Positions 17,120 to 63,136 of a stretch of 64,000 bases of DNA are shown one piece after another. How positions within the stretch are numbered: position 1 is the stretch's first letter; each line of letters begins with the position of its first letter. The notes under the pieces are model-generated. The model saw only the letters and a list, made by a program, of their open reading frames with translations, made no database searches and was not told where the DNA came from. The translations under genes were made by a program, and so were the position numbers. The stretch spans positions 2,480,001 to 2,544,000 of the forward strand of contig NZ_JAJJMO010000001.1 of the NCBI RefSeq assembly GCF_020905345.1. Reading direction: 5' to 3'. Source of the stretch: Flavobacterium pisciphilum. GTDB lineage: Bacteria; Bacteroidota; Bacteroidia; Flavobacteriales; Flavobacteriaceae.

Positions 17120-17157
17120 TTTATTCAATTTAATATAATTCTTTCTTTGAATTTACC

Positions 17158-17187
17158 TTGGATAATCTAAAAAACATTCTATATTTG
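17158..17187 (+). promoter_or_regulatory. Promoter of tRNA-Phe copy 2
   Basis: TTG at 17158-17160, 19 bp spacer, TATATTTG at 17180-17187. The spacing is the same as in copy 1, and the sequence from CTAAAAAACATTC onward is shared with it. Confidence 0.7.
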
Positions 17188-17203
17188 CACCCGCTACAAG
17201 CAC

Positions 17204-17276
17204 GGTACCTTAGCTCAGATGGTAGAGCAATGGACTGAAAATCCATGTGTCCCTGGTTCGATCCCTGGAGGTACCA
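17204..17276 (+). tRNA. tRNA-Phe (GAA), copy 2
   Basis: Identical 73-nt tRNA sequence 188 bp after copy 1, anticodon GAA at 17237-17239. The repeated unit covers the -7 element, tRNA and terminator, so this is a tandem duplication of a whole transcription unit. Confidence 0.95.
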
Positions 17277-17278
17277 CA

Positions 17279-48924: not shown

Positions 48925-49500
48925 ATGGCAATTAACTTACAGAAAGGGCAAAAAATAAATATTGGTTTATCAAAAATCACAATAGGTTTAGGTTGGGATC
49001 CAAACGAAGGAACAGGAAGTGATTTTGACTTGGATGCATCCGCAATAATGATAAATTCAGACAGAAAACTTTTAGGTGAAGACTACTTCGTTTTTTATAA
49101 TAATCTAAAATCTCCTGATGAATCTTTAGAGCATACAGGTGATGATCCCGATGGAAAAAGTAGTGACGGTGATGATGATGAAGCTATAAAAGTTGATTTA
49201 AGTAAAATTGACCCAAGAGCTAATGAAATTTTATTTGTTGTAACAATTGAAGATTTTGAAAGAAGAAAACAAAACTTTGGTCAAGTTAGAAATTCATATA
49301 TTAGAATAGTTGATAATGAAACTGGAGAAGAAATTGCCAAATATGAATTGGATGAAGATTTCTCAATAGAAACAGGAGTAGAATTTGGAAGGCTTTATAA
49401 GAAAAATGACCAATGGAAATTTGAAGCTTCAGGAATTGGATATAGAGCCGATTTAGGTTTCTTTTTGGAGAAATACTATTCTGGCGAGATCATCAAATAA
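48925..49500 (+). CDS. terD: TerD-family protein (first)
   Basis: 191 residues, cytosolic, one TerD domain. It has the typical start MAINLQKGQKINIGL and LGWDPNEGTGSDFDLDASA. The acidic calcium-binding region HTGDDPDGKSSDGDDDEAIK is followed by RNSYIRIVDNETG. TerD proteins bind calcium and form part of chemical-stress (tellurite, phage, DNA damage) response systems. It is the first gene of the plus-strand Ter cluster, behind a palindrome-bearing promoter region. The C-terminal end (GYRADLGFFLEKYYSGEIIK) differs from the other copies. Confidence 0.92.
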   Translation: MAINLQKGQKINIGLSKITIGLGWDPNEGTGSDFDLDASAIMINSDRKLLGEDYFVFYNNLKSPDESLEHTGDDPDGKSSDGDDDEAIKVDLSKIDPRANEILFVVTIEDFERRKQNFGQVRNSYIRIVDNETGEEIAKYELDEDFSIETGVEFGRLYKKNDQWKFEASGIGYRADLGFFLEKYYSGEIIK

Positions 49501-49596
49501 AAACGATACATAATCAAATCCATTAATTACTAATTCCAGATTAACAATTTAGTACTTAAGAGAGGTTGTGCATTCAACTTAAATCTTGAAGATAAT

Positions 49597-50286
49597 TTGT
49601 TACTGTCTAAACCTGTAAAATTGAAAATAAATCATTCAAACTATAGTCATCTTTCATTCGATTTATGGCTAACCCTTATAAAATCAAATCCTGAATTTAA
49701 AAGCAAGAGAAATCTATTATTTAAAGATTTTTTTGATGTAGATTGTTCAATCGAGAAGGTTAATGAGGTAATACGCTATTATGATGTTTTATGTAATAAT
49801 ATAAATGAAAGAACAGGTTCTAATATTGACACTTATGAAATTTATTATTTAATTTTAAACGCATTAAATTTAGATATAAACAATTTCTCAACGGATAAAT
49901 TGGAATTATTCTATAAAGAGACTGAATTATTATTTTTAAAATATAAACCAGAACTCCTATATCATAATATCCCACAACTATTTGATGAAATTACTAAGCA
50001 AGAAAAAACAATTAACTTACTAAGCAATACAGCTTTCATCAGAGGAAATACATTGAGAAAAATATTATCTCATTATGAATTAGAAGATTATTTTAAATTT
50101 CAAATATACTCTGATGAAGTAGGGATTTCAAAACCAAATAGTCAAATATTTCAATTAGTATTTGACCAAGCAAATGAAATAAAAAAAATAACAAAAAAAG
50201 AAATACTGCATATTGGAGATAATATTGTGGCCGATTACAATGGGGCTATTAATTTTGGATTTGATGCACATCTATTAAAATTATAA
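49597..50286 (+). CDS. HAD-superfamily hydrolase of the Ter cluster
   Basis: 229 residues. There is no ATG in the open frame; I use the TTG at 49597 (a second TTG is at 49621). HAD motifs: I, SFDLWLTL near residue 21 (nucleophile Asp kept, but the second Asp replaced by Trp as in haloacid-dehalogenase-like members with DxY); II, LLSNTAF; III, the Lys in GISKPNSQIF; IV, HIGDNIVADYNGA. The family in Ter operons has been proposed to take part in making a nucleoside-like metabolite. The next gene starts 2 bp after the stop, so they are coupled. Markedly AT-rich codon use. Confidence 0.8.
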   Translation: MLLSKPVKLKINHSNYSHLSFDLWLTLIKSNPEFKSKRNLLFKDFFDVDCSIEKVNEVIRYYDVLCNNINERTGSNIDTYEIYYLILNALNLDINNFSTDKLELFYKETELLFLKYKPELLYHNIPQLFDEITKQEKTINLLSNTAFIRGNTLRKILSHYELEDYFKFQIYSDEVGISKPNSQIFQLVFDQANEIKKITKKEILHIGDNIVADYNGAINFGFDAHLLKL

Positions 50287-50288
50287 AA

Positions 50289-51095
50289 GTGAATAAAAAT
50301 TATAGTTTACATAAGATTCTTGAAAAAGATAATTGCCCATTTCAAGAAGAAGAATACAGCCGATTTAAGTTTGGTGATAAATTCTATGCAGAAAAATTTG
50401 CAAAAGAATTATTCAATGGCTTTACTGAACAATATGGCGAATTAATTTTATCAAACACGGAAATCGTAATACTCCCAAGTCCGTTTTTATCGATACCCAC
50501 CGCATCAAACTTTTTGTGTTATTATTTCAAGAAACAACTGAATACCTTTCTATTTAAAAACAATAAAAAAGCATGTATTGAATCTAAAATTTACAGAAAC
50601 CAAACTTATGTTACTGATTATGGGAATTTAGATTTTGAAGAAAGAGTAAAATTAATCTCTAACGATACTTATTATATTGATAGAAATTTCATTGAAGGAA
50701 AGTTATGTATTTTCGTAGATGACATTAAGATCACGGGGAGCCATGAACATACTGTAAATAAAATACTGAATCAGTATAATGTAAATGGAGATTTTGTATT
50801 TGTTTATTTTGCTGAATTGGCAAACAAAGAGATTCATCCAAACATAGAAAATTATTATAATTATTATTCCGTTAAGAACGTTGAAGACATAGTGAACATT
50901 ATAAACAGTGATCATTTTCAATACAACACTCGAATAGTAAAATTTATATTAAGTCTCAACGAAGACGATTTTAGCTATTTAGCAAATAACATTTCGTTGC
51001 AAAAAAGCAGTGATTTATTTCACCTAGCAATAAGTAATAATTACCATCAGATTATAGAATACAGAAATAACATTAACGTAATAAAAATAGATTAA
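50289..51095 (+). CDS. Phosphoribosyltransferase-like protein of the Ter cluster
   Basis: 268 residues with a GTG start at 50289, 2 bp after the HAD gene. The PRPP-binding motif is clear near residue 143: CIFVDDIKITGSHEHT matches the type I PRTase pattern hhhhDDhhTTGxT. An upstream strand ILPSPFLSIPTASNF fits the family core. The C-terminal 90 residues are not recognised. PRTases in Ter operons are thought to build a nucleotide-like product; usually an ATP-grasp and a lyase accompany them, but none are visible here. The base composition is as AT-rich as that of the HAD gene. Confidence 0.72.
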   Translation: MNKNYSLHKILEKDNCPFQEEEYSRFKFGDKFYAEKFAKELFNGFTEQYGELILSNTEIVILPSPFLSIPTASNFLCYYFKKQLNTFLFKNNKKACIESKIYRNQTYVTDYGNLDFEERVKLISNDTYYIDRNFIEGKLCIFVDDIKITGSHEHTVNKILNQYNVNGDFVFVYFAELANKEIHPNIENYYNYYSVKNVEDIVNIINSDHFQYNTRIVKFILSLNEDDFSYLANNISLQKSSDLFHLAISNNYHQIIEYRNNINVIKID

Positions 51096-51098
51096 ATT

Positions 51099-51653
51099 AT
51101 GGCTATCAACTTACAAAAAGGGCAAAGAGAAAACATAAATGCCCCGAAATTTACAATTGGTTTAGGATGGGATACAAATAGTACCTCAACAGGAACAGGA
51201 TATGATCTTGATGCTTCTGTATTTGTATTAGGAGATAATAAAAAAATAATCTCTGATGCTCATTTTATATTTTATAACAATTTAAAATCACCAGACGAGT
51301 CTGTAATCCACACAGGAGACAACTTAACAGGAGATGGAGACGGAGATGATGAGCAAGTAAAAATTGATTTAACAAAAATTGACTCAGCAGTAAAGGAAAT
51401 CTGTATTGTTGTTACGATACATGATGCACAAAACAGAAAACAAAATTTTGGACAAGTTCGTAATTCATTTATTAGAATTGTAGATGATAGCAACAATACC
51501 GAAATGGTTAAATACGAATTAGAAGAAGACTTCTCAATAGAAACTGCTGTTGAGTTTGGTAGAATATATAATAAAGACGGACAATGGAAATTTGAAGCTA
51601 TTGGCGCAGGAATGAAAGGTGGATTAGAGGATTATTTAAATAAATATAACTAG
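51099..51653 (+). CDS. TerD-family protein (second)
   Basis: 184 residues, 3 bp after the PRTase-like gene. Start MAINLQKGQRENINAPKFTI; core LGWDTNSTSTGTGYDLDASV, acidic calcium-binding stretch HTGDNLTGDGDGDDEQVKID, and QNFGQVRNSFIRIVDDSN. Ends GMKGGLEDYLNKYN, a C-terminus shared with the fourth copy, so these two are closest relatives. Calcium-dependent stress scaffold protein by family. Named E. coli counterparts (TerD/TerE) cannot be assigned one to one. Confidence 0.92.
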   Translation: MAINLQKGQRENINAPKFTIGLGWDTNSTSTGTGYDLDASVFVLGDNKKIISDAHFIFYNNLKSPDESVIHTGDNLTGDGDGDDEQVKIDLTKIDSAVKEICIVVTIHDAQNRKQNFGQVRNSFIRIVDDSNNTEMVKYELEEDFSIETAVEFGRIYNKDGQWKFEAIGAGMKGGLEDYLNKYN

Positions 51654-51657
51654 AAAA

Positions 51658-52266
51658 ATGGCAATAAATTTAGAAAAAGGACAACGTATCAATCTTGAAA
51701 AAAGCAATGGTACTAAATTACAGAATATTTGCGTAGGAGTAAATTGGGGTGCTATTGAGAAAAAAGGGCTTTTTGGAACAAAAAAAGAACCTGTTGATCT
51801 AGATGCAAGTTGTGCTATTTATGATGAAAAGAAAAACCATATAGATTCTGTTAATTTTAGAAAACTATTATCTAATGACCAAGCTATTAAGCACAGTGGT
51901 GATGATTTAACTGGAGATTTAAACGGTGATGACGGATTAGATAATGAAGTTATTACTTTAGATTTTTCAAGAATATCACCATCTGCAAACCATGTAGCTT
52001 TTTTTATAAATAGTTTTAGAGGACAAGATTTTAAAGATATTCCATTTGCATCTATCAGAATATACGAAGGAACTCCAACAAGAGTTAACCAAGAATATGC
52101 TCGTTATGATATTGCAAACGATGCTTCTTTTGCTGGAAATGTATCAATGGTTCTTGGTGTTTTTTACAAAAGAAATGATGAATGGAAATTTAGTGCTATT
52201 GGAACACCTACAAGAGATAAAAAACTTGAAGAAACGATTCAAACTATCCAACAAAATCATTTATAA
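51658..52266 (+). CDS. TerD-family protein, TerZ-like (third)
   Basis: 202 residues, 4 bp after the previous copy. Start MAINLEKGQRINLEKSNGTK, then CVGVNWGAIEKKGLFGTKKE and DLDASCAIYDEKKNHIDSVN. Acidic metal-binding stretch HSGDDLTGDLNGDDGLDNEV, and the Ter-typical IRIYEGTPTRVNQEYARYDI. The WGAIE start and longer body place it in the TerZ-like subgroup together with the fifth copy (54933). Cytosolic, calcium-binding by family. Confidence 0.9.
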   Translation: MAINLEKGQRINLEKSNGTKLQNICVGVNWGAIEKKGLFGTKKEPVDLDASCAIYDEKKNHIDSVNFRKLLSNDQAIKHSGDDLTGDLNGDDGLDNEVITLDFSRISPSANHVAFFINSFRGQDFKDIPFASIRIYEGTPTRVNQEYARYDIANDASFAGNVSMVLGVFYKRNDEWKFSAIGTPTRDKKLEETIQTIQQNHL

Positions 52267-52274
52267 GAAACAAC

Positions 52275-53363
52275 ATGATAGACAATCAATTAGTTACTCA
52301 AGAAAACGTTGCGTTAATTGACAAAGATGGAAATGTAAACTTAGCTACAATTACTGAAACAGAAATAAATAGCTACAAATCGATCTCAAATCAATTAAAT
52401 GAAAACGATGCCAATTCGATTTTAAATTACGGTGCTGAAATTCAAAATTCTATTGCAAAACAAAGTGATACTTTTTTGACCAACGTAAGAACATATAATT
52501 CTGGCGAGGTAGGAACTTTGATTAATGATTTGTTGACTGAATTAAATTATGTAGATGTTGACCAGTTAGACCAAGGTCCGTTTAAACGATTTCTTTCAAA
52601 GATTCCAGTCATTAATAAATTAGTTGTTGATGTAAAAAAATTATTCCAACAATACGATAAGATTACTGTAAACATTGATAAAATCAGTAATAAAGTAAAA
52701 GCAGGAATGATTAATTCTGTTAAAGATAATAGCGCTCTTCAAACAATGTTTGATGGTAATGTGGGACTTATCAAAGAAATGGAGAAACATGTCATTGCGG
52801 GTCAAATTCGTTTTAAAGAACTAAACGAAGAACTTGCTGTGATGGAAGCCAATACTGCACAATATCAAGATTATCAAATTTCTGATAAAAGGAATTTCAT
52901 AAACCGTCTAGATAAACGTTTGGCCGACATGAAAATTGTTCGTTTTATTATGTTGCAATCTCTAGCGCAAATACGTGTGGTTCAAAACAACAATACCTCT
53001 ATTGCAGAAAAAGCGCAATCTATCTTAACAACAACAATGCCTGTCTGGAAAAACCAGTTAACCCTGGCTGTTGCTTTACAGAGACAAAAACAAAATATTG
53101 AAATACAGCGAAAAGTATCTGAAACAACAAATACTATTTTGCAGAAAAATGCCGAAATGCTTAAACAAAACAGCATTGAAGTAGCCAAAGAAAATGAAAA
53201 CACAATTGTTTCTTTAGAAACACTTAAAATGACAACCAAATCTTTAATAGATACTTTGACAGAAGTAAAACAAATTCACGAACAAGGTACAGAAACCAGA
53301 AGACAACTTGATGCTGGTTTACAAAGTCTTGAAAGTGAATTAAAAAAAGGTGTCATAAGTTAA
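52275..53363 (+). CDS. telA: Toxic anion resistance protein TelA/KlaA family
   Basis: 362 residues, 8 bp after the TerZ-like gene. Mostly helical with long coiled-coil character. The conserved TelA part includes PFKRFLSKIPVINKLVVDVK near residue 100, LQTMFDGNVGLIKEMEKHVI and YQDYQISDKRNFINRLDKRL, LMLQSLAQIRVVQNNN-type segment and PVWKNQLTLAVALQRQKQNI. The family is tied to tellurite and other toxic anion resistance; the mechanism is not known. In this cluster it stands between TerD copies, as in other Ter systems. Confidence 0.9.
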   Translation: MIDNQLVTQENVALIDKDGNVNLATITETEINSYKSISNQLNENDANSILNYGAEIQNSIAKQSDTFLTNVRTYNSGEVGTLINDLLTELNYVDVDQLDQGPFKRFLSKIPVINKLVVDVKKLFQQYDKITVNIDKISNKVKAGMINSVKDNSALQTMFDGNVGLIKEMEKHVIAGQIRFKELNEELAVMEANTAQYQDYQISDKRNFINRLDKRLADMKIVRFIMLQSLAQIRVVQNNNTSIAEKAQSILTTTMPVWKNQLTLAVALQRQKQNIEIQRKVSETTNTILQKNAEMLKQNSIEVAKENENTIVSLETLKMTTKSLIDTLTEVKQIHEQGTETRRQLDAGLQSLESELKKGVIS

Positions 53364-53387
53364 TTCAATATAAGATAAGCCCATTAA

Positions 53388-54353
53388 ATGCAAGAGGAAG
53401 AGGAACGGTACGTTCAAATAATAAAAGATAGTAACAGAAAACTTGTGATTTTAGAATTGTTATCCAATTTCTTTAATCACAAGGATCTTGTTGGTACCTT
53501 AATAAAAACAAAAATAATCCATACTCTTTTTCAAAATAACCGCACATTAGACATTAATAAATTAGAATTATTTCACATACAGTTTACAAATAGCCTTATT
53601 GATTTATTTCAAAAAATCAAGAAATCAAAAGAACAGAACTATCTTTTAATTTCGGATGAGATATACATTAATGATGACATTATTTCAAAACTAAAATCAG
53701 AAATAGGAGAAACTAAGTTTACTAATCAAATGCGGGTTCATTCTCAAAATATGTCTAAAAAGATTGAGGAATTATATAACATATTTGTAACTGATAAATC
53801 TGCTTTATTTAATTGGAATGATATAACAATTTTTTCTGACAGCGTTCAATCCGAATACTACAGAGAAATAAGCATTGATCAATATGAGCAGCTCACCCGC
53901 TACAACAAAAGCTTGTATGAAAACTCATTTGCGAAATTTGAAAAAAAATTATTAGGCAGGTTAAATATTCTAAAATTCAAAATTAAATTTTTGTGTGGAT
54001 TAGTTTGTAATAACGAGACGATTGAAGTCTATGAATTTAGAGACTCTAATGACAAATTTATTTATGTTGCCAATGATAAATCTTTCTATTTTTTAAATAG
54101 TGAAAATTCTATAGGAATAGATTTATCAAAAAACAATTCTGCAAAAGAAGAAATTGTAATACAATTAACAGCTAAAAATGCAGATTTGAACTTAGAGCTT
54201 AGCACAATCAAATCAATACTACCAGAAACTGTTCAAGAAGTATTAAAAGATTATTTAGACAAAATTTCATCTGTTGATTTCTTAGATGAGTTACAAAATG
54301 TGGATGAACAAACAAATATTTTAAAAACAATGTTAAACATTAATATTAATTAA
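53388..54353 (+). CDS. Unknown protein of the Ter cluster (321 residues)
   Basis: I do not recognise a family. 321 residues, soluble, no signal peptide, rich in Lys, Asn and Ile. Helical in the first two thirds (ILELLSNFFNHKDLVGTLIK, RVHSQNMSKKIEELYNIF). A beta-rich segment with IEVYEFRDSNDKFIYVANDK lies in the centre, and a C-terminal helical coil (NADLNLELSTIKSILPETV) follows. It sits 24 bp after telA and 9 bp before a terD gene, same strand, so it is a genuine operon member. It may be a partner of TelA; that is only position-based. Confidence 0.7.
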   Translation: MQEEEERYVQIIKDSNRKLVILELLSNFFNHKDLVGTLIKTKIIHTLFQNNRTLDINKLELFHIQFTNSLIDLFQKIKKSKEQNYLLISDEIYINDDIISKLKSEIGETKFTNQMRVHSQNMSKKIEELYNIFVTDKSALFNWNDITIFSDSVQSEYYREISIDQYEQLTRYNKSLYENSFAKFEKKLLGRLNILKFKIKFLCGLVCNNETIEVYEFRDSNDKFIYVANDKSFYFLNSENSIGIDLSKNNSAKEEIVIQLTAKNADLNLELSTIKSILPETVQEVLKDYLDKISSVDFLDELQNVDEQTNILKTMLNININ

Positions 54354-54362
54354 AAGAATAAA

Positions 54363-54914
54363 ATGGCAATTAATTTAGAAAAAGGGCAAAGACAAAGTAT
54401 CGATGCACCAAAATTTACTGTAGGATTAGGATGGGATAGTAATTCTAGTAGTACTGGAGAAGGCTTTGACTTAGATGCATCAATATTTTTAGTTGGTGCT
54501 AATGGTAAACTTCCTTCTGATAATCATTTTGTATACTATAACAATCTAAAATCACCTGATCAAGCTGTAATCCATACTGGAGATAATTTAACTGGAGCCG
54601 GAGATGGAGATGATGAAAAAATACAAATTGATTTATCAAGAATTGCCCCAGAGGTTTCTGAAATTTCATTTGTAGTTACTATACATCATGCAGATACAAG
54701 AAGACAAAATTTTGGTCAAATTAGAAACTCATTTATCAGAATTCTGGATCAATCTAATGTAGAATTGGTTAAATATGAATTAGACGAAGATTTCTCTATA
54801 GAGACAGCAGTTGAATTTGGAAGAATTTACAAAAGAAACGATGAATGGAAATTTGAAGCTGTTGGTGTAGGAATGAAAGGTGGTTTACAAGATTATTTAA
54901 ATAAATACAATTAA
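54363..54914 (+). CDS. TerD-family protein (fourth)
   Basis: 183 residues, 9 bp after the unknown gene. Start MAINLEKGQRQSIDAPKFTV, core LGWDSNSSSTGEGFDLDASI, acidic stretch HTGDNLTGAGDGDDEKIQID, then RQNFGQIRNSFIRILDQSN and GMKGGLQDYLNKYN. Very close to the second copy (51099), indicating duplication within the cluster. Calcium-binding stress protein by family. Confidence 0.92.
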   Translation: MAINLEKGQRQSIDAPKFTVGLGWDSNSSSTGEGFDLDASIFLVGANGKLPSDNHFVYYNNLKSPDQAVIHTGDNLTGAGDGDDEKIQIDLSRIAPEVSEISFVVTIHHADTRRQNFGQIRNSFIRILDQSNVELVKYELDEDFSIETAVEFGRIYKRNDEWKFEAVGVGMKGGLQDYLNKYN

Positions 54915-54932
54915 CAAGAAACACTAAGAAAC

Positions 54933-55592
54933 ATGGCAATTAACTTAACCAAAGGACAAAAAATTGATCTAAGAAAATCAAGTGGTGAATCATTAACAAA
55001 TTTCTGCGTTGGTGTAAACTGGGGAGCAATTGAAACAAAAGGATTCTTAGGATTATCAAAAAACGTAAAAGATGTAGACTTAGATTTAAGTTGTATTCTA
55101 ATTGATGATCAGAACAACCTTTGTGATCATTTATATTCTCCTCTATACAGAATTGAAGCGTTACAACAATTTGGTCTACCAAAAGGTAAATTATTAAGTG
55201 TTGATGGTGCTTTAAAACATACTGGAGATGACCTTGCTGGAGATACAGGTGGAGATGACGGTTTAGATAATGAAATTATAACTGTAGATTTATCAAGAGT
55301 AGATTCAAAAGTTAATCAAATATTTTTCTTCTTGAACAATGCAGGAAATGAAGATTTTTCTCAAATTCCTTATGCAAAGATTAGAATGTACGAAGGTACT
55401 CCAACAAGAGTAGTTTCAGAATTTGCGTCCTATAATGTTTCTGCAGATAATCAATATGTAAACAAACGTTCAATCATTATGGGTAAACTATACAAACGAA
55501 ATAATGAATGGAAATTTAGTGCTATTGGAGATCCTACAGAAGATACATTCTTAGGGCAAACAATCCACAAAATTGTAGCATCTTATCTATAA
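54933..55592 (+). CDS. TerD-family protein, TerZ-like (fifth)
   Basis: 219 residues, 18 bp after the fourth copy. Start MAINLTKGQKIDLRKSSGES, then CVGVNWGAIETKGFLG and DVDLDLSCILIDDQNNLCDH. It has an insert of about 16 residues (YRIEALQQFGLPKGKLLSVD) not present in the third copy. Acidic stretch HTGDDLAGDTGGDDGLDNEI and IRMYEGTPTRVVSEFASYNV follow. It ends the TerD block; a spacer with hairpins comes before the vWA block. Confidence 0.9.
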   Translation: MAINLTKGQKIDLRKSSGESLTNFCVGVNWGAIETKGFLGLSKNVKDVDLDLSCILIDDQNNLCDHLYSPLYRIEALQQFGLPKGKLLSVDGALKHTGDDLAGDTGGDDGLDNEIITVDLSRVDSKVNQIFFFLNNAGNEDFSQIPYAKIRMYEGTPTRVVSEFASYNVSADNQYVNKRSIIMGKLYKRNNEWKFSAIGDPTEDTFLGQTIHKIVASYL

Positions 55593-55633
55593 TACCCCTA
55601 CAGGTATTTGAAATAGTTCTTCAAATAAATTAC

Positions 55634-55690
55634 CTCCTCCTCCATCTGAATTAAATATTGTTTTTTAAAATTTAGACAGGAGGAGTTTTT
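55634..55690 (+). terminator. Possible attenuator between the TerD and vWA blocks
   Basis: CTCCTCC (55634-55640) can pair with GGAGGAG (55679-55685) over a 38-base loop, followed by TTTTTATTTTT. A shorter hairpin TATTTGAA/TTCAAATA lies at 55605-55627. The spacer 55593-55781 holds no gene. The long loop makes terminator function uncertain. Confidence 0.4.
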
Positions 55691-55781
55691 ATTTTTAGAA
55701 AACCGCTAAATACAGTTTTTATAAATACTGTAGGCAATTTTTGAGTTATGTAATATCATTTCAATCATTTTTAAAAGTTAT

Positions 55782-56417
55782 ATGAGAAGATTACCAGTAT
55801 ATTTTTTATTAGATACCTCAGGTTCAATGTACGGCGAACCCATTCAAGCCTTAAATAATGCTTTGAGCGGTATGATTAACACATTGCGTTCAGATGCACA
55901 AGCTTTAGATTCTCTTTGGATAAGCATCATAACTTTTGATAGAGATGTAAAAGAGATTGTGCCATTAACAGAATTGGTAAACTTCCAACTTCCAGAAATA
56001 ATATGTCCTCAAAGTGGCCCAACAAATACTGGAGCAGGACTTGAGTTTGTAATTGAAAAAGTAAACGCAGATGTGATAAAAGGTTCACCAACTCAAAAAG
56101 GAGATTGGAAACCTTTACTTTTTGTATTTACAGATGGAAAACCATCAGACATTCAACTTTATAGACAAAAAACACCAGAAATTAAAAACCTAAATTTTGG
56201 TGCTATTGTAGGTTGTGCAGCTGGACACATGGCCAATGATGATATTTTGAAAGAACTAACAGATAATGTCGTCCATCTAGACTCTGCTGATAGCTCTACT
56301 TTAAAGCAATTTTTTAAATGGGTATCTGAAACGATTGAGCAAGGCAATAAAAGCCAAGGAACTGGAGAAAGCGTAGCCTTACCTCCACCGCCAAGCGAAA
56401 TAACTATCGTAATCTAA
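55782..56417 (+). CDS. vWA-domain protein of the Ter cluster (TerY-like)
   Basis: 211 residues, cytosolic, a single von Willebrand A domain. The metal-dependent adhesion site is complete: DTSGSM at residues 10-15, a Thr in GPTNTGAG near 77, and the Asp in FTDGKPSD near 121. Ends with a Pro/Ser-rich tail (TGESVALPPPPSEITIVI). In Ter systems such vWA proteins are proposed to scaffold complexes with a phosphatase and kinase. It heads the second block; the next gene follows 11 bp later. Confidence 0.9.
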   Translation: MRRLPVYFLLDTSGSMYGEPIQALNNALSGMINTLRSDAQALDSLWISIITFDRDVKEIVPLTELVNFQLPEIICPQSGPTNTGAGLEFVIEKVNADVIKGSPTQKGDWKPLLFVFTDGKPSDIQLYRQKTPEIKNLNFGAIVGCAAGHMANDDILKELTDNVVHLDSADSSTLKQFFKWVSETIEQGNKSQGTGESVALPPPPSEITIVI

Positions 56418-56428
56418 ATTTTTAGAAG

Positions 56429-56887
56429 ATGATAGATATAATATTTAAACTTTCAACATCAATTATTGATGTGGCAAAATATGCAGACGAAGCCTATCAT
56501 GAAGGAGAACCAGATATAGACTCGATAGTTTTAAGCTCAGCTGAAAGATTAGAACTCATGGATATAGACAATCTAGTCGTGTGTTACCAATCAATAATTG
56601 TAAATGCTTTTACAATTAAACAGATAGAGCAACTTTTAATAGATAATTATCAAAAAGAGCATTTATACATAAGAGACATTATAACACGCAAGAACTGTAT
56701 TTACATAAAAGTAATGCATGCTATACCCTTTACAGATATAGATAAATGTTACGGGACTTCTTTTTCCATTAACTATATGGAGTCAAATAATTGTATATCT
56801 GTTTATGGGATTAAAACAAAAAACACAGACGAAAAACAGGCTTTTAAAGAAATTGCACATGAATTAATAACTACTCTTTCAAAATGA
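56429..56887 (+). CDS. Unknown small protein of the vWA/phosphatase/kinase block
   Basis: 152 residues, no signal peptide or membrane segment, no family recognised. An acidic patch AYHEGEPDIDSIVLSSAERLE near residue 25 is followed by alternating short beta and helix stretches (LVVCYQSIIVNAFTIKQIEQ, CIYIKVMHAIPFTDIDKCYG, NNCISVYGIKTK). Its TGA overlaps the ATG of the following (broken) membrane gene, so its presence in the operon is firm. Role unknown. Confidence 0.65.
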   Translation: MIDIIFKLSTSIIDVAKYADEAYHEGEPDIDSIVLSSAERLELMDIDNLVVCYQSIIVNAFTIKQIEQLLIDNYQKEHLYIRDIITRKNCIYIKVMHAIPFTDIDKCYGTSFSINYMESNNCISVYGIKTKNTDEKQAFKEIAHELITTLSK

Positions 56888-57129
56888 TTCTTATTAAACT
56901 TTTCATCCAGATTCTAATAATTGGTTTGTTTTTATATTCAACCCTACTACCCTATAAATATAAATTGAATCCGCAATGCAAAAAGACTTTTGACTTTTTC
57001 AAGAGTGTCTTTTTACCATATTCAATTTTCTAAAACCAGTTGCAAAGCCATTTTTAGAATAGGATTGCAATTGATATAACACAAATCGCGCTTTTAATTA
57101 TTTTTTTAATGCTATTAAATTTCCTTTAA
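56884..57129 (+). pseudogene. YggT-like small membrane-protein gene, reading frame disrupted twice
   Basis: The ATG at 56884 overlaps the preceding stop (ATGA). Frame 1 reads MILIKLFIQILIIGLFLYST and on to NPQCKKTFDFFKSVFLP (about 57018), then meets a stop at 57031. The plausible continuation IFNFLKPVAKPFLE lies two frames over (57018-57056). The original frame then resumes with NRIAIDITQIALLIIFLMLL and stops at 57129, one base before the next ATG. Joined, this gives about 80 residues with hydrophobic ends and a P-x(1-2)-C pattern in the middle, like YggT-family proteins. Losses of one base near 57020 and two near 57056 would explain it; sequencing error is an alternative. Confidence 0.6.
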
Positions 57130-57130
57130 A

Positions 57131-58186
57131 ATGAGAAGATTACCTATATATTTTTTGATTGATATATCCGAATCAATGGTTGGAGAACCTATTCAACAAG
57201 TTGAAGAAGGGCTAGCTACAATTATTCAAGCTTTAAAAACAGATCCTCATGCGCTGGAAACTGTATTTGTTTCTATCATAGTTTTTGCTGGGCAACCTAA
57301 AACATTAGTTCCTTTGCAAGAAATAGTTAGTTTTTATCCTCCTAAATTCCCCATTGGAAGCGGAACCTCATTAAGCAAAGGATTAGGGCATTTAATGCAT
57401 GAATTGAGAACAAATATTGTTAAGACTACCTATGAAATGAAAGGAGATTGGAAACCAATTGTATTTTTATTTACAGATGGAGTCCCAACAGATGATAGTA
57501 AAGCCGCAATTAATGAATGGAAACTTAATTGGCAAAAAACGGCTAACCTAATTGCAATCTCTTTTGGAAACGAAACTGACACAAAACTTTTAGGAGAATT
57601 AACAGAAAACGTTTTACACTTTAATAATACAAATGTTCAGTCTTATAAAGAATTCTTCAAGTGGGTTACAGATTCTATAAAAACAAGTAGTATAAGTGTA
57701 GAAAGCAATTCGACAGGTTTTGAATTGGCAAAATTAGATGGAGAAACACTTTCGAAAATAGATTTAACCAAATCAGAACCAAATCGTCAATATGTAGATG
57801 ATAATTTTGTTGTGTTAAACGGGAAATGTCAAAATACCAAAAGACCGTATTTGATGAAATACCGCAAAACAATTGCTCCATCAATTTATGCGGGTATCGA
57901 GTTATCATCAAAAAACTACAAGTTAGTTGGAGCATATCAAGTTGACAATTCTTATTTTGAACTAGCAGATACAACAAATTTCAACAATAAAGTAAATACC
58001 GACGAACTTATAGGAGGCCCGACATGTCCTTGTTGTGGCAATCAAATTGCATTTGCAGTCTGTGTTTGCAGCAAAATACATTGCATTGGCGATGAGAATA
58101 TAAGTACCTGTCCTTGGTGCAATAATCAAGGTACTTATGGCGCTAGTGGCGAAGGTGGTTTTGATGTAAACAGAACGCAAGGATAA
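57131..58186 (+). CDS. terY: vWA protein with C-terminal metal-binding domain (TerY-C type)
   Basis: 351 residues. A vWA domain (about 1-190) has the MIDAS DISESM at residues 10-15, GSGTSLSKG near 78 and FTDGVPTDD near 117. A linker and beta-rich region (about 225-290) follow. The end has a Cys-rich cluster GGPTCPCCGNQIAFAVCVC and ISTCPWCNNQGTYG, which should bind zinc; this is the pattern of the TerY-C metal-binding domain. The gene starts 1 bp after the broken YggT-like frame and 7 bp before the phosphatase. It is likely the scaffold of the phosphatase-kinase triad. Confidence 0.9.
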   Translation: MRRLPIYFLIDISESMVGEPIQQVEEGLATIIQALKTDPHALETVFVSIIVFAGQPKTLVPLQEIVSFYPPKFPIGSGTSLSKGLGHLMHELRTNIVKTTYEMKGDWKPIVFLFTDGVPTDDSKAAINEWKLNWQKTANLIAISFGNETDTKLLGELTENVLHFNNTNVQSYKEFFKWVTDSIKTSSISVESNSTGFELAKLDGETLSKIDLTKSEPNRQYVDDNFVVLNGKCQNTKRPYLMKYRKTIAPSIYAGIELSSKNYKLVGAYQVDNSYFELADTTNFNNKVNTDELIGGPTCPCCGNQIAFAVCVCSKIHCIGDENISTCPWCNNQGTYGASGEGGFDVNRTQG

Positions 58187-58193
58187 TTTTTTT

Positions 58194-59603
58194 ATGGAAG
58201 AAACAAAAAAATATCTCCAAGCTTTTTTATCACAAAATAAAATCGATATCTCAAAAAGCAAGCATACGCTTTTTAATGATTTTATCAATAATGAAACTAA
58301 TATTACAGCAGTTAAGATAATAAAAGAAAATCAACAAAAGATTATGGCAAACTGGGTGCTAAAAACTAGAATTGATGATATCATTCAACAATCAGTATTA
58401 TTACCGAATGGTACAGTGAATAAAAATTATGAATCAAAAATTGACTTTATTAAATTAGGCTGGAACGATATTATTTATTCAGAAATTAAAAACTTAGACG
58501 ATACTGGACTTTCTTTTAACGATACGGAAGAGTTACTTCATGGAAATCCAAAAATAAGCGGCGATTTAAAATTAAAACTATTATTCAGAGTTGAAGGAGA
58601 AGAAGAAAATTCAACATTAAATGAAAAGACAATTACGGTAATTATAAATCCTGATCCAAAATCTTTGTGGAAAAACATTGAAAGCGATAAAACTGATCCT
58701 TTCTGGAAAGAAGATAACATTGCTATCTCTGGAAAGTTTTTGGACAAAAACATAGTTATAGCTTCAAAAAGAGGAAGAAGTCATGCCAATGTTGGTTCCT
58801 TTAGAGATGATGATTATACTTTTAAAAACATTAATGAAACAGGCTGGTCTGTTCTAGCAGTTTCAGATGGTGCTGGCTCAGCAAATTCATCAAGACAAGG
58901 ATCTAAATTGGCCTGTGATTTAGTGATTGAATATTTTGAACAGAATTTAAAACCCGAATATCTAAAAGAATTTGACGAAACGCTCTTAAACCATTATAAC
59001 AAAACAGATGAAGAGACATCAAAAAAAATAAACCATTTTGTTTACAATACACTATCAAAGGCAGCTCATTATGTGTATGAAAAACTAGATGAGTTTGCCA
59101 TACAAAACGGAAGAGAACTAAAAGATTTTCATTCGACTTTAATATTTACATTAGTCAAAAAATATGATTTTGGCTATGCCATCCTAACCTTTGGAGTTGG
59201 TGATTGCCCTATAGGTCTATTAAACAAAGATTTAACCGAAATAAAACTAATGAACTGGTTAGATGTTGGAGAATTTGGCGGAGGAACACGATTTATTACA
59301 ATGCCAGAAATATTTCAAAGTGATAAATTCCCATCCCGTTTTGGTTTTAAATTAGTTGATGATTTCTCTTATTTGATGTTAATGACAGATGGAATTTACG
59401 ACCCTAAATTTGTTGTTGAAGTTAATTTAGAAAAAATAACAAAGTGGAATGATTTTTTAGGAGATTTGCACGGAAATAATGAAGATGGCCATAAGGTCGA
59501 TTTTAATCCCGAAAACACTCAAATTGCAAACCAGCTTTCGACATGGATGGATTTTTGGAGTCCAGGAAATCACGATGACAGAACCCTAGCTATAATTTAC
59601 TAA
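58194..59603 (+). CDS. PP2C-family serine/threonine phosphatase of the Ter triad
   Basis: 469 residues. The first 185 residues are not recognised (charged, possibly regulatory). The PP2C domain starts around IVIASKRGRSHANVGSFRDD near residue 185. It has SDGAGSANSSRQGSKLACD near 223 (metal-binding Asp), LMTDGIYDP near 400 and GNHDDRTLAIIY at the C-terminus (metal-binding Asp). It removes phosphate from Ser/Thr; its partner kinase follows 3 bp later. By published description of Ter systems, vWA, PP2C and kinase form a TerY-phosphorylation triad; this cluster has all three. Confidence 0.9.
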   Translation: MEETKKYLQAFLSQNKIDISKSKHTLFNDFINNETNITAVKIIKENQQKIMANWVLKTRIDDIIQQSVLLPNGTVNKNYESKIDFIKLGWNDIIYSEIKNLDDTGLSFNDTEELLHGNPKISGDLKLKLLFRVEGEEENSTLNEKTITVIINPDPKSLWKNIESDKTDPFWKEDNIAISGKFLDKNIVIASKRGRSHANVGSFRDDDYTFKNINETGWSVLAVSDGAGSANSSRQGSKLACDLVIEYFEQNLKPEYLKEFDETLLNHYNKTDEETSKKINHFVYNTLSKAAHYVYEKLDEFAIQNGRELKDFHSTLIFTLVKKYDFGYAILTFGVGDCPIGLLNKDLTEIKLMNWLDVGEFGGGTRFITMPEIFQSDKFPSRFGFKLVDDFSYLMLMTDGIYDPKFVVEVNLEKITKWNDFLGDLHGNNEDGHKVDFNPENTQIANQLSTWMDFWSPGNHDDRTLAIIY

Positions 59604-59606
59604 ATC

Positions 59607-61118
59607 ATGAGTATAGTTACCGTAAAATCAATTAATGACCCCGCAAAATCATATCAATTTGTTGATAATGGAGAACCTATGCGTGGTGGCGTAAAGGATG
59701 TATATTTTAGTCCGGATAAAAAATATGTAGTCGCAATTTTTAGAGACAAATTAGACTTAAACCAAAAAGAAAGACTACAAAAAATAACTAATTATTATTT
59801 GCCTCAAATTCAGAGCAAGGAAGCAGGTGATTATTACTTAAATGAAGTTTTCAGATGGCCTACAGATGTTATCGAATATAACAATCTAACAGGGGTCATT
59901 GTACCGATCTACAATTCAAAATTTTTCTTTAAAAAAGGATATGCAACAAGTGATTTAATTCAGGGGAAAGAAAAACAAGGATTGTGGTTCTCAAGCTCTA
60001 AATTTAGAAATCCGCAATATCCGCTTAGAGTAGCAAATTCAGAATTGGGAGATTGGTTAAGTTATTTTCAGATTTCAGTTAATTTAACTCGAGGAGTAAA
60101 AAAAATGCACGCCATGGGATTGGCACATTCCGATTTATCACACAGGAATGTATTAGTAGATCCAATTGAAAAATCTGCTTGCATAATAGATATAGATGGA
60201 TTAGTAGTTCCAGGATTATTTCAGGCAGAAGTAATTGGAACTCCAGGTTTTATAGCACCCGAAGTACTAGCAACTAAACATCTAAATAAAACAGACCCAA
60301 ACAGAAAATTACCAAACAGACTAACAGATCTGCATGCCTTGCCTGTGCTTATTTATATGTTTTTATTACGGCGCCATCCATTAAAAGGAAGTAAAGTTCA
60401 TGACCTAGATACCGAAAAAGATGATTTATTATCTATGGGCGAAAAAGCAATGTTTATAGAACACCCTACAGACAATACAAACAGACCTAAACTTAATCAG
60501 GTATCAAAATGGGATTTGCCTTGGGCAGATATCACCAAACTGCCTTATACAATTGCGGGACCTTACCTAAAAACATTATTCGATAAAGTATTTATAGATG
60601 GATTACACAATCCGATGCAAAGACCAACTGCTGAAGAATGGGAAATTGCATTATTAAAAACTTCAGATTTAATGCAGAAGTGCCACAACCCTTCCTGCGA
60701 ACAAAAATGGTATGTTTTTGACAATACAAATACCCCAAGATGTCCCTTTTGTAAAACCTCTCACAAAGGCACACTTCCAGTTTTAGACCTGTATTATCAA
60801 TACCAAGAATCGGTATGGAAACCAGAAAATCATAGATTAATGGTTTATAACGATCAGTACTTGTTTCAATGGCACGTTAATCGTAATATTGCCAGAAATG
60901 AAAAACTAACCTCAGAGCAGAAAATACCAGTGGGTTACTTTACATTTCATGACAATAAATGGGTATTGGTTAATCAAAAACTAACCTCTTTAAAGGATCT
61001 AACAGAAGATAAAGAAATCCCAATCGGTACAATGGTAGAGCTTACCGATGGAAAAAAACTACTCCTTTCTAGAGAAGAAGGAGGAAGAGTAATCATAATT
61101 ACAATGGCTAACAAATAA
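59607..61118 (+). CDS. Protein kinase with C-terminal zinc ribbon (Ter triad)
   Basis: 503 residues. Kinase domain about 20-360. The ATP-binding Lys region is VKDVYFSPDKKYVVAIFRD. Catalytic loop HSDLSHRNVLVD has Asp176, and the metal loop IDIDGLV has Asp195 (DIDG in place of DFG). GTPGFIAPEVL is the activation-segment end. After the kinase comes a four-Cys ribbon (CHNPSC, then CPFC; about 360-385) and a beta-rich C-terminal domain of about 110 residues (QWHVNRNIARNEKLTSEQKI). It is soluble and lies 3 bp after the phosphatase and 43 bp before terC. Confidence 0.9.
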   Translation: MSIVTVKSINDPAKSYQFVDNGEPMRGGVKDVYFSPDKKYVVAIFRDKLDLNQKERLQKITNYYLPQIQSKEAGDYYLNEVFRWPTDVIEYNNLTGVIVPIYNSKFFFKKGYATSDLIQGKEKQGLWFSSSKFRNPQYPLRVANSELGDWLSYFQISVNLTRGVKKMHAMGLAHSDLSHRNVLVDPIEKSACIIDIDGLVVPGLFQAEVIGTPGFIAPEVLATKHLNKTDPNRKLPNRLTDLHALPVLIYMFLLRRHPLKGSKVHDLDTEKDDLLSMGEKAMFIEHPTDNTNRPKLNQVSKWDLPWADITKLPYTIAGPYLKTLFDKVFIDGLHNPMQRPTAEEWEIALLKTSDLMQKCHNPSCEQKWYVFDNTNTPRCPFCKTSHKGTLPVLDLYYQYQESVWKPENHRLMVYNDQYLFQWHVNRNIARNEKLTSEQKIPVGYFTFHDNKWVLVNQKLTSLKDLTEDKEIPIGTMVELTDGKKLLLSREEGGRVIIITMANK

Positions 61119-61161
61119 ATATAAAACAATTAAAAACAAAAATTAACTTAATAAATAACAA

Positions 61162-62160
61162 ATGAACGAACATCCCATTTTCTCAGAACATCCTGGATTA
61201 ATAGCAATTTTTGCAATCGCAGTAGTTATAATGCTATTATTAGATTTAGGTATTTTCAACAAAAAAAGTCATGTAGTAAGTAATAAAGAAGCTATTTCCT
61301 GGTCATTAGTATGGATAAGCTTAGCAATGGGTTTTAGTGGTTTAGTATACTATTATGCTGGTTCGGCTAAATTTTATGAATTCCAATCGGCGTATTGGAT
61401 CGAAAAAGCACTTTCTGTAGACAACCTTTTTGTTTTTATATTAGTATTCAAGTTTTTTGATGTACCAAACACCAACAAACATAAAGTCTTATTCTGGGGT
61501 ATCATAGGAGCTTTAGTACTAAGAGCTATATTTATATTCTCAGGTGCTTTCTTAATCGAATTAACGTATTTAAACAAGCTTTTAAGCCTAGTAGGTGTCG
61601 AAGGATTCAAATACGATATTAACTTAATCATGACTGCCTTTGGACTATTCTTAGTGTATGCAGGAATAAAATCATGGTCAGCAGGGAATGAAGACGAAGA
61701 TGAAGACTACAACAACACAAGAGGAGCAAGATTAATTAGAAAGTTCTTTAGCGTAAGCGATAAATACGATGGTGATAAATTCTTCACAATCGAAAACGGA
61801 AAGAAACTAGCAACACCACTTTTGGTAGTTGTAGCAGTTATAGAATTTACAGATTTACTTTTTGCAGTAGATTCAATCCCTGCAATTTTTGCTATCTCAA
61901 ATGATCCATTTATCCTTTATACATCAAACATATTTGCAATTTTAGGTTTAAGAGCATTGTTCTTCTTACTTGATAATTTCATCCATTTGTTTAGTAAACT
62001 ACAATACGGACTAGCAATAATCCTTGCTTTTATTGGAGTAAAAATGATTATCTCACCATTCTATCACATAGAATCACTGTACTCTTTAATTGTTATTGCA
62101 GGTGTTTTAGTAATATCAGTAATCTTATCAGTTGCGTTTCCAGAGCCAAAAGAAGCATAA
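61162..62160 (+). CDS. terC: TerC-family integral membrane protein
   Basis: 332 residues, seven or more hydrophobic segments. Signature DNLFVFILVFKFFDVP near residue 88 and LLFAVDSIPAIFAISNDPF near 232 with the conserved membrane Asp residues, then NIFAILGLRALFFLL. TerC/Alx proteins are implicated in metal ion (manganese or calcium) homeostasis and exporting. It closes the Ter cluster and gives the membrane arm of the system. The charged loop between segments (EDEDEDYNNTRGARL) is typical. A strong terminator follows. Confidence 0.93.
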   Translation: MNEHPIFSEHPGLIAIFAIAVVIMLLLDLGIFNKKSHVVSNKEAISWSLVWISLAMGFSGLVYYYAGSAKFYEFQSAYWIEKALSVDNLFVFILVFKFFDVPNTNKHKVLFWGIIGALVLRAIFIFSGAFLIELTYLNKLLSLVGVEGFKYDINLIMTAFGLFLVYAGIKSWSAGNEDEDEDYNNTRGARLIRKFFSVSDKYDGDKFFTIENGKKLATPLLVVVAVIEFTDLLFAVDSIPAIFAISNDPFILYTSNIFAILGLRALFFLLDNFIHLFSKLQYGLAIILAFIGVKMIISPFYHIESLYSLIVIAGVLVISVILSVAFPEPKEA

Positions 62161-62180
62161 AACAAATAATATACACACTA

Positions 62181-62210
62181 AAAAAGACCTCAATTGAGGT
62201 CTTTTTTATT
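62181..62210. terminator. Terminator of the Ter cluster
   Basis: Perfect 26-bp palindrome AAAAGACCTCAATTGAGGTCTTTT with a T run on the plus strand and an A run before it. It also serves the minus-strand gene that ends at 62235. Confidence 0.9.
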
Positions 62211-62234: not shown

Positions 62235-62879
62235 TTAGTTTATAGTTCCGTATTCGTTAATATAATAAAGGTTTAATTTTTTAGTCCTTTTCGAATTATA
62301 ATTTAAAATTTCATAACTTACAATTGGAGATAACTTCTTATTTTTTGGGTCATTATTTTCATCTTCAATTATTTTTCCTACTATATCGTATAGATTATCT
62401 TTTAAGAGGAAAAATAGAACGCTTCGAGCATTCTTTCTGTCTAACTTCTTATAGTTTTTTAAGTATTCGGGATATTTTTCTATTTTATAATCATTATCCT
62501 CATTTTGTTGAAAACAATAGAATTTATTATCGAAAATTACAAAGCCTTTCATACCTGATATATTAAAACCAGATTCTACTAAAATTGTAATTTCATTATC
62601 ATTTTCATTAAGGTCATTTAAAGCTAAAATATTTTTAAACATTAAAATTTTATTTTCTGTATCTTCTTTTTGACTTTTAGCTTGAAACTCAATTAATCCA
62701 ATTCCATATAGCGTTTTACATATACTATCCATTTTAGGGTCAATTTGATTTCTCAATTCATCAGTAGTTTTAGTTTCCCAAATTGGCTTCATCAAATTAA
62801 AATACTCATCTCCCAAACTTTGCGAGAATATATTTTGACATGTAAAAAAAATCAAAATGATTAAACTAAAAAGTTTCAT
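62235..62879 (-). CDS. Exported protein of unknown function
   Basis: 214 residues from the ATG at 62879; that start gives the clean signal peptide MKLFSLIILIFFTCQNIFSQ. An upstream in-frame ATG at 62897 would add six residues. The mature part is hydrophilic and Asn/Lys/Asp-rich (NENDNEITILVESGFNISG). It includes KFYCFQQNEDNDYKIEKYPE and ends in NLYYINEYGTIN. I recognise no family. It faces the Ter cluster across the terminator. Upstream (62880-63217) is a 338-bp spacer. Confidence 0.65.
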   Translation of the reverse strand: MKLFSLIILIFFTCQNIFSQSLGDEYFNLMKPIWETKTTDELRNQIDPKMDSICKTLYGIGLIEFQAKSQKEDTENKILMFKNILALNDLNENDNEITILVESGFNISGMKGFVIFDNKFYCFQQNEDNDYKIEKYPEYLKNYKKLDRKNARSVLFFLLKDNLYDIVGKIIEDENNDPKNKKLSPIVSYEILNYNSKRTKKLNLYYINEYGTIN

Positions 62880-63136
62880 ATAATATAATTTAAACATTAA
62901 GTATAATATAATTAAGTTTGAAGAGGTTGAGCAATTTATAGCGAAGCATAATGTCCAACTTAAAATGCGATAAAGGTAATATTCTCAATTAGTAAATATA
63001 CTCGAACCAAATCTTCCCTACACATTCTAATTAGCCAAATATAAAAGAATTATAGAGCTAAATAATTCTCCATGTAGAATATATTTTAGTATTCAAAAAA
63101 AATCATAAGTTTTCTGTTTATGAAAAAATCAAATAG

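What the first reader, a model, noticed from the sequence alone, without database searches (positions are those of the whole stretch)
48925..62160. A complete Ter stress system with an unusual gene set
The 13-kb block has five TerD-family genes, TelA, TerC, a full vWA-PP2C-kinase triad, a HAD/PRTase pair and two proteins that I cannot assign. Published analyses describe Ter systems as sensing or metal-linked complexes with a biosynthetic module. This version has a reduced module with no ATP-grasp or lyase, so it may use another route or have lost metabolite production. It is the strongest candidate for an incompletely described system in the window.
Basis: partly seen in the sequence, partly recalled or inferred. 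Interest (0 to 1): 0.7.

Follow-up and report, generated by a model that had tools for sequence, protein, structure and literature searches.

The report
A widespread Flavobacterium Ter stress operon
This is a real 13-kb stress-response (Ter) operon of a kind found across Bacteroidota; it shows no sign of having lost a metabolite pathway but carries a different two-enzyme one that large phages also carry, while its kinase module is partly decayed.

Summary
The block is real: 15 intact genes on one strand. Five TerD, TelA, TerC, HAD, PRTase_3, two vWA proteins (one TerY), PP2C, kinase and two proteins without a local Pfam, NCBIfam or PADLOC match. The genome has no Ter-type lyase or PRTase_2 and no Ter ATP-grasp above cut-off, so that observation holds. 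'Reduced module' does not. HAD-PRTase_3 is a separate two-enzyme module: no significant similarity to the R478 ter stretch, directly adjacent in 79 of 80 named Bacteroidota loci, and also in large phages (of 11 examined, 10 also have TerD, 10 TelA, 11 TerC, none the lyase). It is an ordinary Bacteroidota subtype; its outline and the TerY-P triad are in print.

Details I did not find described: the HAD has Trp where phosphatases have the general-acid Asp (118 of 118 aligned sequences with that column); U321 occurs exactly where TelA does (64 of 64 loci, 0 of 16 without); and the kinase module is eroded: one vWA gene (3' scar left) and a membrane gene are gone, and a second small gene is a pseudogene. 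Three relatives with the same left flank lack the whole module.

Interest is modest; the open point is what the HAD-PRTase pair makes.

The parts
48925..49500 (+). T1: TerD-family protein (canonical type)
   Evidence: PF02342 E 1.7e-66; acidic segments DLDAS, GDDP, GDDDE
49597..50286 (+). HAD-superfamily enzyme with motif I DxWxT (Trp at the usual general-acid position)
   Evidence: PF00702 1.4e-10; D22, W24, T26, S143, K179, D208, D213 invariant in 13 diverse sequences; DxWxT in 118 of 118 aligned sequences with that column, one row lacking it. Start codon uncertain (TTG as listed)
50289..51095 (+). PRTase_3 (ComF-like phosphoribosyltransferase), 2 bases after HAD
   Evidence: PF15610 1.9e-89; PRPP-loop residues D, D, T, G and H invariant in 120 of 120
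51099..51653 (+). T2: TerD-family protein (canonical type)
   Evidence: PF02342 1.3e-73; solved relatives 3ibz, 2kxt/2kxv
51658..52266 (+). T3: divergent TerD-family protein
   Evidence: PF02342 6.1e-33
52275..53363 (+). TelA
   Evidence: PF05816 2.3e-91; the only TelA hit of the genome
53388..54353 (+). U321: partner of TelA in Bacteroidota; N-terminal helices, small beta domain, conserved C-terminal tail
   Evidence: No hit in local Pfam/NCBIfam; labelled PF26677 in the protein database; in all 64 loci with TelA and none of 16 without; no match in the phage collection; AlphaFold2 pLDDT 81.6, pTM 0.57
54363..54914 (+). T4: TerD-family protein (canonical type)
   Evidence: PF02342 1e-71
54933..55592 (+). 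T5: divergent TerD-family protein
   Evidence: PF02342 4.1e-30
55593..55781 (+). Spacer with scar: 3' end of a deleted vWA gene copy (the first of two in relatives)
   Evidence: One frame reads the last 12 residues of that copy; blastn 95% over 42 bases, E 1e-12, to L037/L062
55782..56417 (+). vWA1: von Willebrand A protein, MIDAS DxSxS present
   Evidence: PF00092 2.2e-13; conserved DTSGS
56429..56887 (+). U152: fast-evolving protein of unknown fold, occasional in this module
   Evidence: No family hit; in 20 of 44 named loci with PP2C-kinase; dN 0.41-0.46 in the two comparisons made
56884..57130 (+). Remnant of an 83-84 aa membrane-protein gene (pseudogene here)
   Evidence: Premature stops; intact in relatives such as L047, L059, L085, L090
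57131..58186 (+). TerY: vWA plus TerY_C metal-binding domain
   Evidence: PF15616 7.7e-51, PF00092 7.7e-14
58194..59603 (+). PP2C phosphatase with a long N-terminal extension
   Evidence: PF13672 1e-27 over residues 193-431
59607..61118 (+). Ser/Thr-type kinase with C-terminal Cys-rich region
   Evidence: PF00069 2.8e-9; HSDLS..N and ID.DG segments conserved
61162..62160 (+). TerC/Alx-type membrane protein (one of three TerC hits in the genome)
   Evidence: PF03741 4.1e-49; TIGR03718 6.3e-105; paralogues
62179..62208 (+). Terminator-like hairpin after the block
   Evidence: 13 pairs plus T-run; such sites as a class not above shuffles

Best explanation
A chromosomal Bacteroidota-type Ter stress/defence operon built from interchangeable modules. 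(1) HAD-PRTase_3: the PRTase joins phosphoribose from PRPP to an unknown acceptor and the HAD processes the product into a small nucleoside-like ligand (inferred from families and intact motifs). (2) Five TerD proteins bind metal (Ca2+) and/or that ligand and dock on the membrane protein TerC, which handles Mn/Zn-type metals (inferred from solved TerD and studied TerC relatives). (3) TelA with U321 forms a helical scaffold under the membrane (linkage shown, function inferred). (4) A TerY-P module, vWA proteins with kinase and PP2C, sets the complex by reversible phosphorylation (inferred). Together they alter envelope and metal state on chemical or phage attack. Shown here: gene content, linkage, conservation, module independence and decay. 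Not shown: any activity. In this strain the TerY-P module is cut down but its remaining genes look functional.
For: Family matches. HAD directly before PRTase_3 in 79 of 80 named loci, PRTase_3 directly before a TerD gene in 75 of 80; modules recombine: TelA+U321 without the kinase module in 33, kinase module without TelA/U321 in 13, both in 31, three others. TelA and U321 occur together in 64 of 64. In 296 Bacteroidota genomes PRTase_3 and U321 occur in the same 8 genomes, TelA in those 8 plus one. Active-site motifs invariant across Bacteroidota, phages and plasmids. Against five relatives dN/dS is 0.016-0.19 in every computable comparison except U152 (0.27) and T4 against a distant TerD paralogue in L037 (0.44); TerC was computable once (0.036) and PRTase_3 once (0.021). 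Of 11 phage records with the pair, 10 have TerD, 10 TelA, 11 TerC and 0 the lyase; in all 50,697 phage records the window's TerD and TelA match only 158 and 219 by tblastn, a lower bound. Two Capnocytophaga genomes with PRTase_3 away from TerD have three TerD hits each elsewhere. PMC7824862 (passage) and PMC11090510 (passages) describe the scheme and the TerY-P triad.
Against: No activity, ligand or phenotype for a Bacteroidota Ter locus appeared in the paper listings I saw. The HAD lacks the general-acid Asp, so the published 'HAD phosphoesterase' step may be wrong. A Rhizobium plasmid carries the pair with no TerD on that record, and phage RHph_I1_18 has the pair with TerC but no TerD or TelA, so the pair may have a job outside Ter; in phi92 it sits near ribonucleotide-reductase genes. 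The locus is patchy (PRTase_3 in 22 of 249 genus genomes). dS is saturated in many comparisons. The 11 phages come from a few lineages and were picked by me; the 80 loci are the closest of 188 and related to each other.
Confidence: 0.72

Rival explanations
1. The HAD-PRTase pair is the leftover of an R478-type pathway that lost its ATP-grasp and lyase, so no metabolite is made.
For: C-C lyase, PRTase_2 and any ATPgrasp_Ter above cut-off are absent from the genome. In Klebsiella a conserved predicted HAD follows the ter operon beside its biosynthetic cluster (PMC8115787, passage); I did not compare that HAD.
Against: The R478 module has ATPgrasp_Ter, C-C_Bond_Lyase, StiP-PELOTA, a weak S6PP-type match and PRTase_2-TRSP; HAD and PRTase_3 find no match better than E 0.23 in that 30-kb stretch. 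The pair without lyase is the form seen in the Bacteroidota genomes tested and in 11 of 11 phages, with invariant catalytic motifs. In the 296-genome sample none of the eight genomes with PRTase_3 has the lyase; two other genomes match it strongly, and in the one I read it lies in what looks like a cell-surface cluster.
Confidence: 0.05
2. The HAD is not a phosphatase but a dehalogenase-like or other hydrolase, or a non-catalytic partner of the PRTase; the pair detoxifies or salvages a compound rather than making a signal.
For: Motif I is DxWxT in 118 of 118 sequences with that column. The profile's best solved match is 2om6 ('probable phosphoserine phosphatase'), which shares DVWNT; several 2-haloacid dehalogenases also match. 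Phage annotators call it 'dehalogenase hydrolase-like'.
Against: Nucleophile Asp, motif II Ser, Lys and acidic motif IV are intact, so it is probably catalytic; a tight pair with a PRTase points to a phosphoribosylated substrate; I have no activity for 2om6 beyond its deposited name.
Confidence: 0.3
3. Primarily a metal-homeostasis or secretion-metalation operon (TerC of Alx type with TerD and TelA); defence or signalling is secondary.
For: TerC matches TIGR03718, the TerC/Alx metal-homeostasis family, over cut-off; Klebsiella terC affects Zn(II) and Mn(II) resistance and the operon is Zn-induced (PMC12054061, abstract and passages).
Against: The genome has two other TerC genes; the same paper reports decreased phage resistance on terC deletion; metal homeostasis does not explain the HAD-PRTase and TerY-P modules.
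Confidence: 0.3

Closest known systems
Ter stress-response systems (Anantharaman, Iyer, Aravind 2012; paper not held, known here only through citing papers)
   Same: TerD array, TerC, TelA, vWA/TerY, PP2C, kinase, PRTase and HAD in one operon
   Different: No TerB among the matches in the block; a TelA partner (U321) that I saw in no description
R478 IncHI2 ter locus with its biosynthetic cluster (NC_005211, 66000-96000)
   Same: TerD-family proteins, TerC, vWA proteins, a PRTase-containing biosynthetic cluster
   Different: R478 uses ATPgrasp_Ter, C-C lyase, StiP-PELOTA, a weak S6PP-type match and PRTase_2-TRSP; none of these is in this block, and HAD/PRTase_3 have no significant match in the R478 stretch
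TerY-P triad (TerY vWA, PP2C, STK-zinc ribbon; PMC11090510 passages)
   Same: TerY with TerY_C, PP2C and a kinase with a Cys-rich C-terminus, contiguous
   Different: Embedded between TerD genes and TerC; many relatives add a second vWA1 and two small membrane proteins, lost or broken here
Ter genes of large phages (PMC7824862 passage; phi92, nepoznato, CcrPW, CcrColossus, Kikimora, XaC1, KP13-16, Tr1, FKP3 and two RHph phages)
   Same: HAD-PRTase_3 pair with TerC, and mostly TerD and TelA, without the lyase
   Different: TerF-type vWA proteins by Pfam in four of them (phi92, CcrPW, Kikimora, KP13-16) and a macro domain after PRTase_3 in phi92; U321 has no match in the phage collection; the genes are spread out. 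ATP-grasp and PRTase_2 were not searched in the phages

Membership tests
Ter system | TerD-family proteins linked to a TerC membrane protein | tested here: met
   Five PF02342 and one PF03741/TIGR03718 in one strand-consistent block
Ter system | TelA linked in the same operon | tested here: met
   PF05816 2.3e-91 between TerD genes
Ter system | Resistance to tellurite, phage or colicin | not testable with these tools
   Needs bench work
R478-type biosynthetic module | ATPgrasp_Ter, C-C_Bond_Lyase and PRTase_2 present | tested here: not met
   Genome-wide: lyase 0; PRTase_2 in 0 of 8 PRTase_3-bearing genomes, own included; ATP-grasp only a sub-cut-off hit in a carbamoyl-phosphate-synthase-like ORF
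TerY-P triad | TerY vWA, PP2C and kinase contiguous | tested here: met
   57131-61118, gaps 7 and 3 bases
TerY-P triad | Kinase C-terminal zinc ribbon or OB fold | tested here: inconclusive
   Two conserved Cys pairs in the C-terminal half (conservation line); no domain model matched there
HAD phosphatase | Motif I DxDxT with general-acid Asp at +2 (rule recalled) | tested here: not met
   DxWxT in 118 of 118 rows with the column
HAD superfamily (any activity) | Nucleophile Asp, motif II Ser/Thr, motif III Lys, motif IV acidic pair (rule recalled) | tested here: met
   D22, S143, K179, D208, D213 invariant in 13 sequences
PRTase_3 (PF15610) | Family match plus PRPP-binding loop with acidic pair | tested here: met
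   1.9e-89; acidic pair, T and G invariant in 120 of 120

The most novel reading that the evidence does not exclude
HAD(DxWxT)-PRTase_3 is a self-contained two-enzyme synthesiser of an uncharacterised ribosyl/nucleoside-like molecule made by non-phosphatase HAD chemistry, read by TerD and shared by Bacteroidota Ter operons and large phages, which use it to run or pre-empt host Ter signalling; TelA-U321 is the membrane effector of that signal in Bacteroidota.
Probability: 0.2. Interest if true: 0.7.

Novelty: new member of a known kind. Interest (0 to 1): 0.33.

Why it matters
Ter systems are linked to phage, metal and toxicant resistance and still lack a settled mechanism. This locus type is compact, its modules occur in natural with/without combinations (relatives with the same left flank lack the kinase module), and the biosynthetic part is only two genes. 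That makes 'what does the Ter module synthesise, and does TerD bind it' a tractable biochemical question.

Tried and rejected
Reduced or lost pathway: rejected (see rivals). Canonical lyase elsewhere in Bacteroidota: 37 of 296 genomes match PF15617; two score near 375 bits and the rest 64 bits or less. I read one of the two strong loci (L141): its ORFs look like a cell-surface cluster (my reading), not Ter; the other (L142) was fetched but not read. U321 homologue beside TelA in phages: seven phage proteins near TelA or TerD, best 3.1 bits by hmmsearch, nothing by hhalign; four are vWA-TerF. The one TelA genome without U321 (G002, L143) has a 261-aa ORF beside TelA (it recalls XpaC to me, not tested). 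U152 structure: mean pLDDT 47.8, unusable. U321 fold comparison: tool switched off; by profile nothing in the PDB better than E 0.17. Promoters: sigma-70-like sites 83 found against 78.0 in shuffles; a Bacteroidota-type pattern (recalled) has no match in five intergenic stretches. Mobile copy: no megablast match in the plasmid collection. PADLOC, 10 of the 15 proteins given: only weak kinase matches and one weak ShosT match. Papers: nine searches; in their listings (titles, beginnings of abstracts) I saw no experimental study of a Bacteroidota Ter locus and no mention of DxWxT in this HAD. The founding 2012 paper is not held and may note either. Dropped or limited: G395's PRTase_3 hit was not fetched; loci L030-L055 and L056-L135 share several genomes, so the counts include duplicates; one HAD row (L144, annotated short) lacks the motif I column; in L117 U321 is split into two ORFs; phage HAD/PRTase rows are 11 of 154 matching records.


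Full report
What is there. Window 48925-62160 holds 15 intact genes on the + strand, most separated by 2-24 bases. A 13-pair terminator-like hairpin follows at 62179-62208; such sites as a class are no commoner than in shuffles. Order: TerD (T1), HAD, PRTase_3, TerD (T2), divergent TerD (T3), TelA, U321, TerD (T4), divergent TerD (T5), vWA1, U152, TerY, PP2C, kinase, TerC. U321 and U152 match nothing in local Pfam, NCBIfam or PADLOC; the protein database labels U321 PF26677, a family not in the local copy.

The missing enzymes are really missing. In the whole genome there is no C-C lyase, no PRTase_2, and one sub-cut-off ATPgrasp_Ter hit inside an ORF that reads as carbamoyl-phosphate synthase (by eye). 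The genome's five TerD hits and single TelA hit lie in this block; TerC has two further copies.

But the module is different, not reduced. As a yardstick, 30 kb around the ter locus of plasmid R478 was read: its cluster is ATPgrasp_Ter, C-C_Bond_Lyase, StiP-PELOTA, a weak S6PP-type match and PRTase_2-TRSP. HAD and PRTase_3 of the window find no match there better than E 0.23. Klebsiella ter loci carry a further conserved predicted HAD (PMC8115787, passage), which I did not compare. In 80 named loci fetched by PRTase_3 (the best 80 of 188 confirmed, hence close relatives), HAD lies directly before PRTase_3 in 79 (the other is a 3.7-kb contig) and a TerD gene directly follows PRTase_3 in 75. In 26 other fetched neighbourhoods (partly the same genomes) the pair is adjacent in all 26. 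PRTase_3 is patchy: 22 of 249 genus genomes and 8 of 296 phylum genomes.

The pair is also a phage gene pair. PRTase_3 matches 154 of 50,697 phage records and HAD 71. In the 11 phage records examined a HAD gene lies directly before PRTase_3, the annotated genes overlapping by 1-32 bases (in RHph_TM21B the annotated HAD is short). Ten of the 11 carry TerD, 10 TelA, 11 TerC and none the lyase, while only 158 and 219 records in the whole collection match the window's TerD and TelA by tblastn, a lower bound. These 11 are from a few lineages and were chosen by me. A Rhizobium plasmid has the pair without TerD on that record. Two Capnocytophaga genomes have PRTase_3 (one with HAD beside it) away from TerD, but three TerD hits elsewhere in each. 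A Hymenobacter plasmid has the pair beside TerD, vWA, PP2C and kinase genes. So the pair behaves as a unit and mostly goes with TerD, linked or not. PMC7824862 (passage) already states that Ter systems make nucleoside/nucleotide derivatives with PRTases and HAD phosphoesterases, sensed by TerB/TerD, with TerC and TelA as membrane parts.

A catalytic oddity. The HAD keeps nucleophile Asp, motif II Ser, motif III Lys and the acidic motif IV, but has Trp two residues after the nucleophile, where phosphatases have the general-acid Asp (rule recalled). This holds in 118 of 118 aligned sequences with that column, down to 24-29% identity in phages (the Bacteroidota rows include duplicate genomes). 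The best solved relative by profile, 2om6 ('probable phosphoserine phosphatase'), has the same DVWNT; 2-haloacid dehalogenases are further down the list. So 'phosphoesterase' should be treated as unproven. PRTase_3's PRPP loop is intact in 120 of 120.

U321 belongs with TelA. Of 80 loci, 64 have TelA and all 64 have U321 (62 directly after TelA, two with one ORF between; in L117 it is split into two ORFs); none of the 16 without TelA has it (of these 16, two are short contigs and one lacks the block). In the phylum sample U321 occurs in the same 8 genomes as PRTase_3, and TelA in those plus one. U321 has no phage match. The model (31 sequences, mean pLDDT 81.6, pTM 0.57) shows long N-terminal helices, a small beta domain and a low-confidence but sequence-conserved tail. 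Fold comparison was not available.

The kinase module is modular and here partly decayed. Of the 80 named loci, 44 have PP2C and kinase, 13 of them without TelA/U321. Eighteen of the 44 show the fuller form: two vWA1 copies, a 137-aa membrane protein, U152, an 83-84 aa membrane protein and TerY. The window lacks the 137-aa gene and the first vWA copy. The T5-vWA1 spacer still reads the last 12 residues of that copy (blastn 95% over 42 bases, E 1e-12), and the small membrane gene is interrupted by stops. In three relatives with the same left flank (L056-L058), T5 is followed by TerC with no kinase module. The remaining module genes still show low dN/dS (vWA1 0.02-0.04, TerY 0.02-0.04, PP2C 0.08-0.14, kinase 0.04-0.06, where computable; dS often saturated). 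The natural reading is loss in progress in this lineage; the direction was not tested with a tree.

Mechanism. The best-supported scheme is a membrane-centred Ter complex (TerC, TerD) with a TelA-U321 scaffold, controlled by phosphorylation (TerY-P; hypothesised to be a metal-sensing phosphorylation switch, PMC11090510 passages) and by a small product of HAD-PRTase_3. Metal and phage links rest on Klebsiella terC data (PMC12054061, abstract and passages). I saw none of this shown for Bacteroidota in the listings and passages read.

Verdict. The novelty claim (reduced module) is not supported: this is a common Bacteroidota subtype of a described system. What is worth keeping is the HAD-PRTase_3 chemistry, the TelA-U321 pair and the natural module-loss series.

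Noticed in passing
56884-57130: Small membrane-protein gene of relatives is a pseudogene here (premature stops).
   Followed up: yes
55593-55781: 3' scar of a deleted vWA gene copy between T5 and vWA1.
   Followed up: yes
L056, L057, L058: Relatives with the same left flank (UbiA, S4/pseudouridine synthase, DUF937) have T5 followed by TerC without the vWA-PP2C-kinase module: a natural with/without pair.
   Followed up: partly
L112:9325-10804: Capnocytophaga HAD-PRTase_3 pair without TerD beside it, though TerD hits occur elsewhere in the genome.
   Followed up: partly
L150:3988-4704: In phage phi92 a macro-domain protein directly follows PRTase_3.
   Followed up: no
L143:9284-11182: A Bacteroidota TelA (genome G002) without U321 stands beside a 261-aa ORF with hydrophobic segments.
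   Followed up: no
9415-9492: Flavo-1 RNA (Rfam RF01705) on the minus strand.
   Followed up: no
17016-17277: Two tRNA-Phe genes in tandem.
   Followed up: no
62235-62897: 220-aa ORF on the minus strand downstream of TerC with no Pfam match.
   Followed up: no
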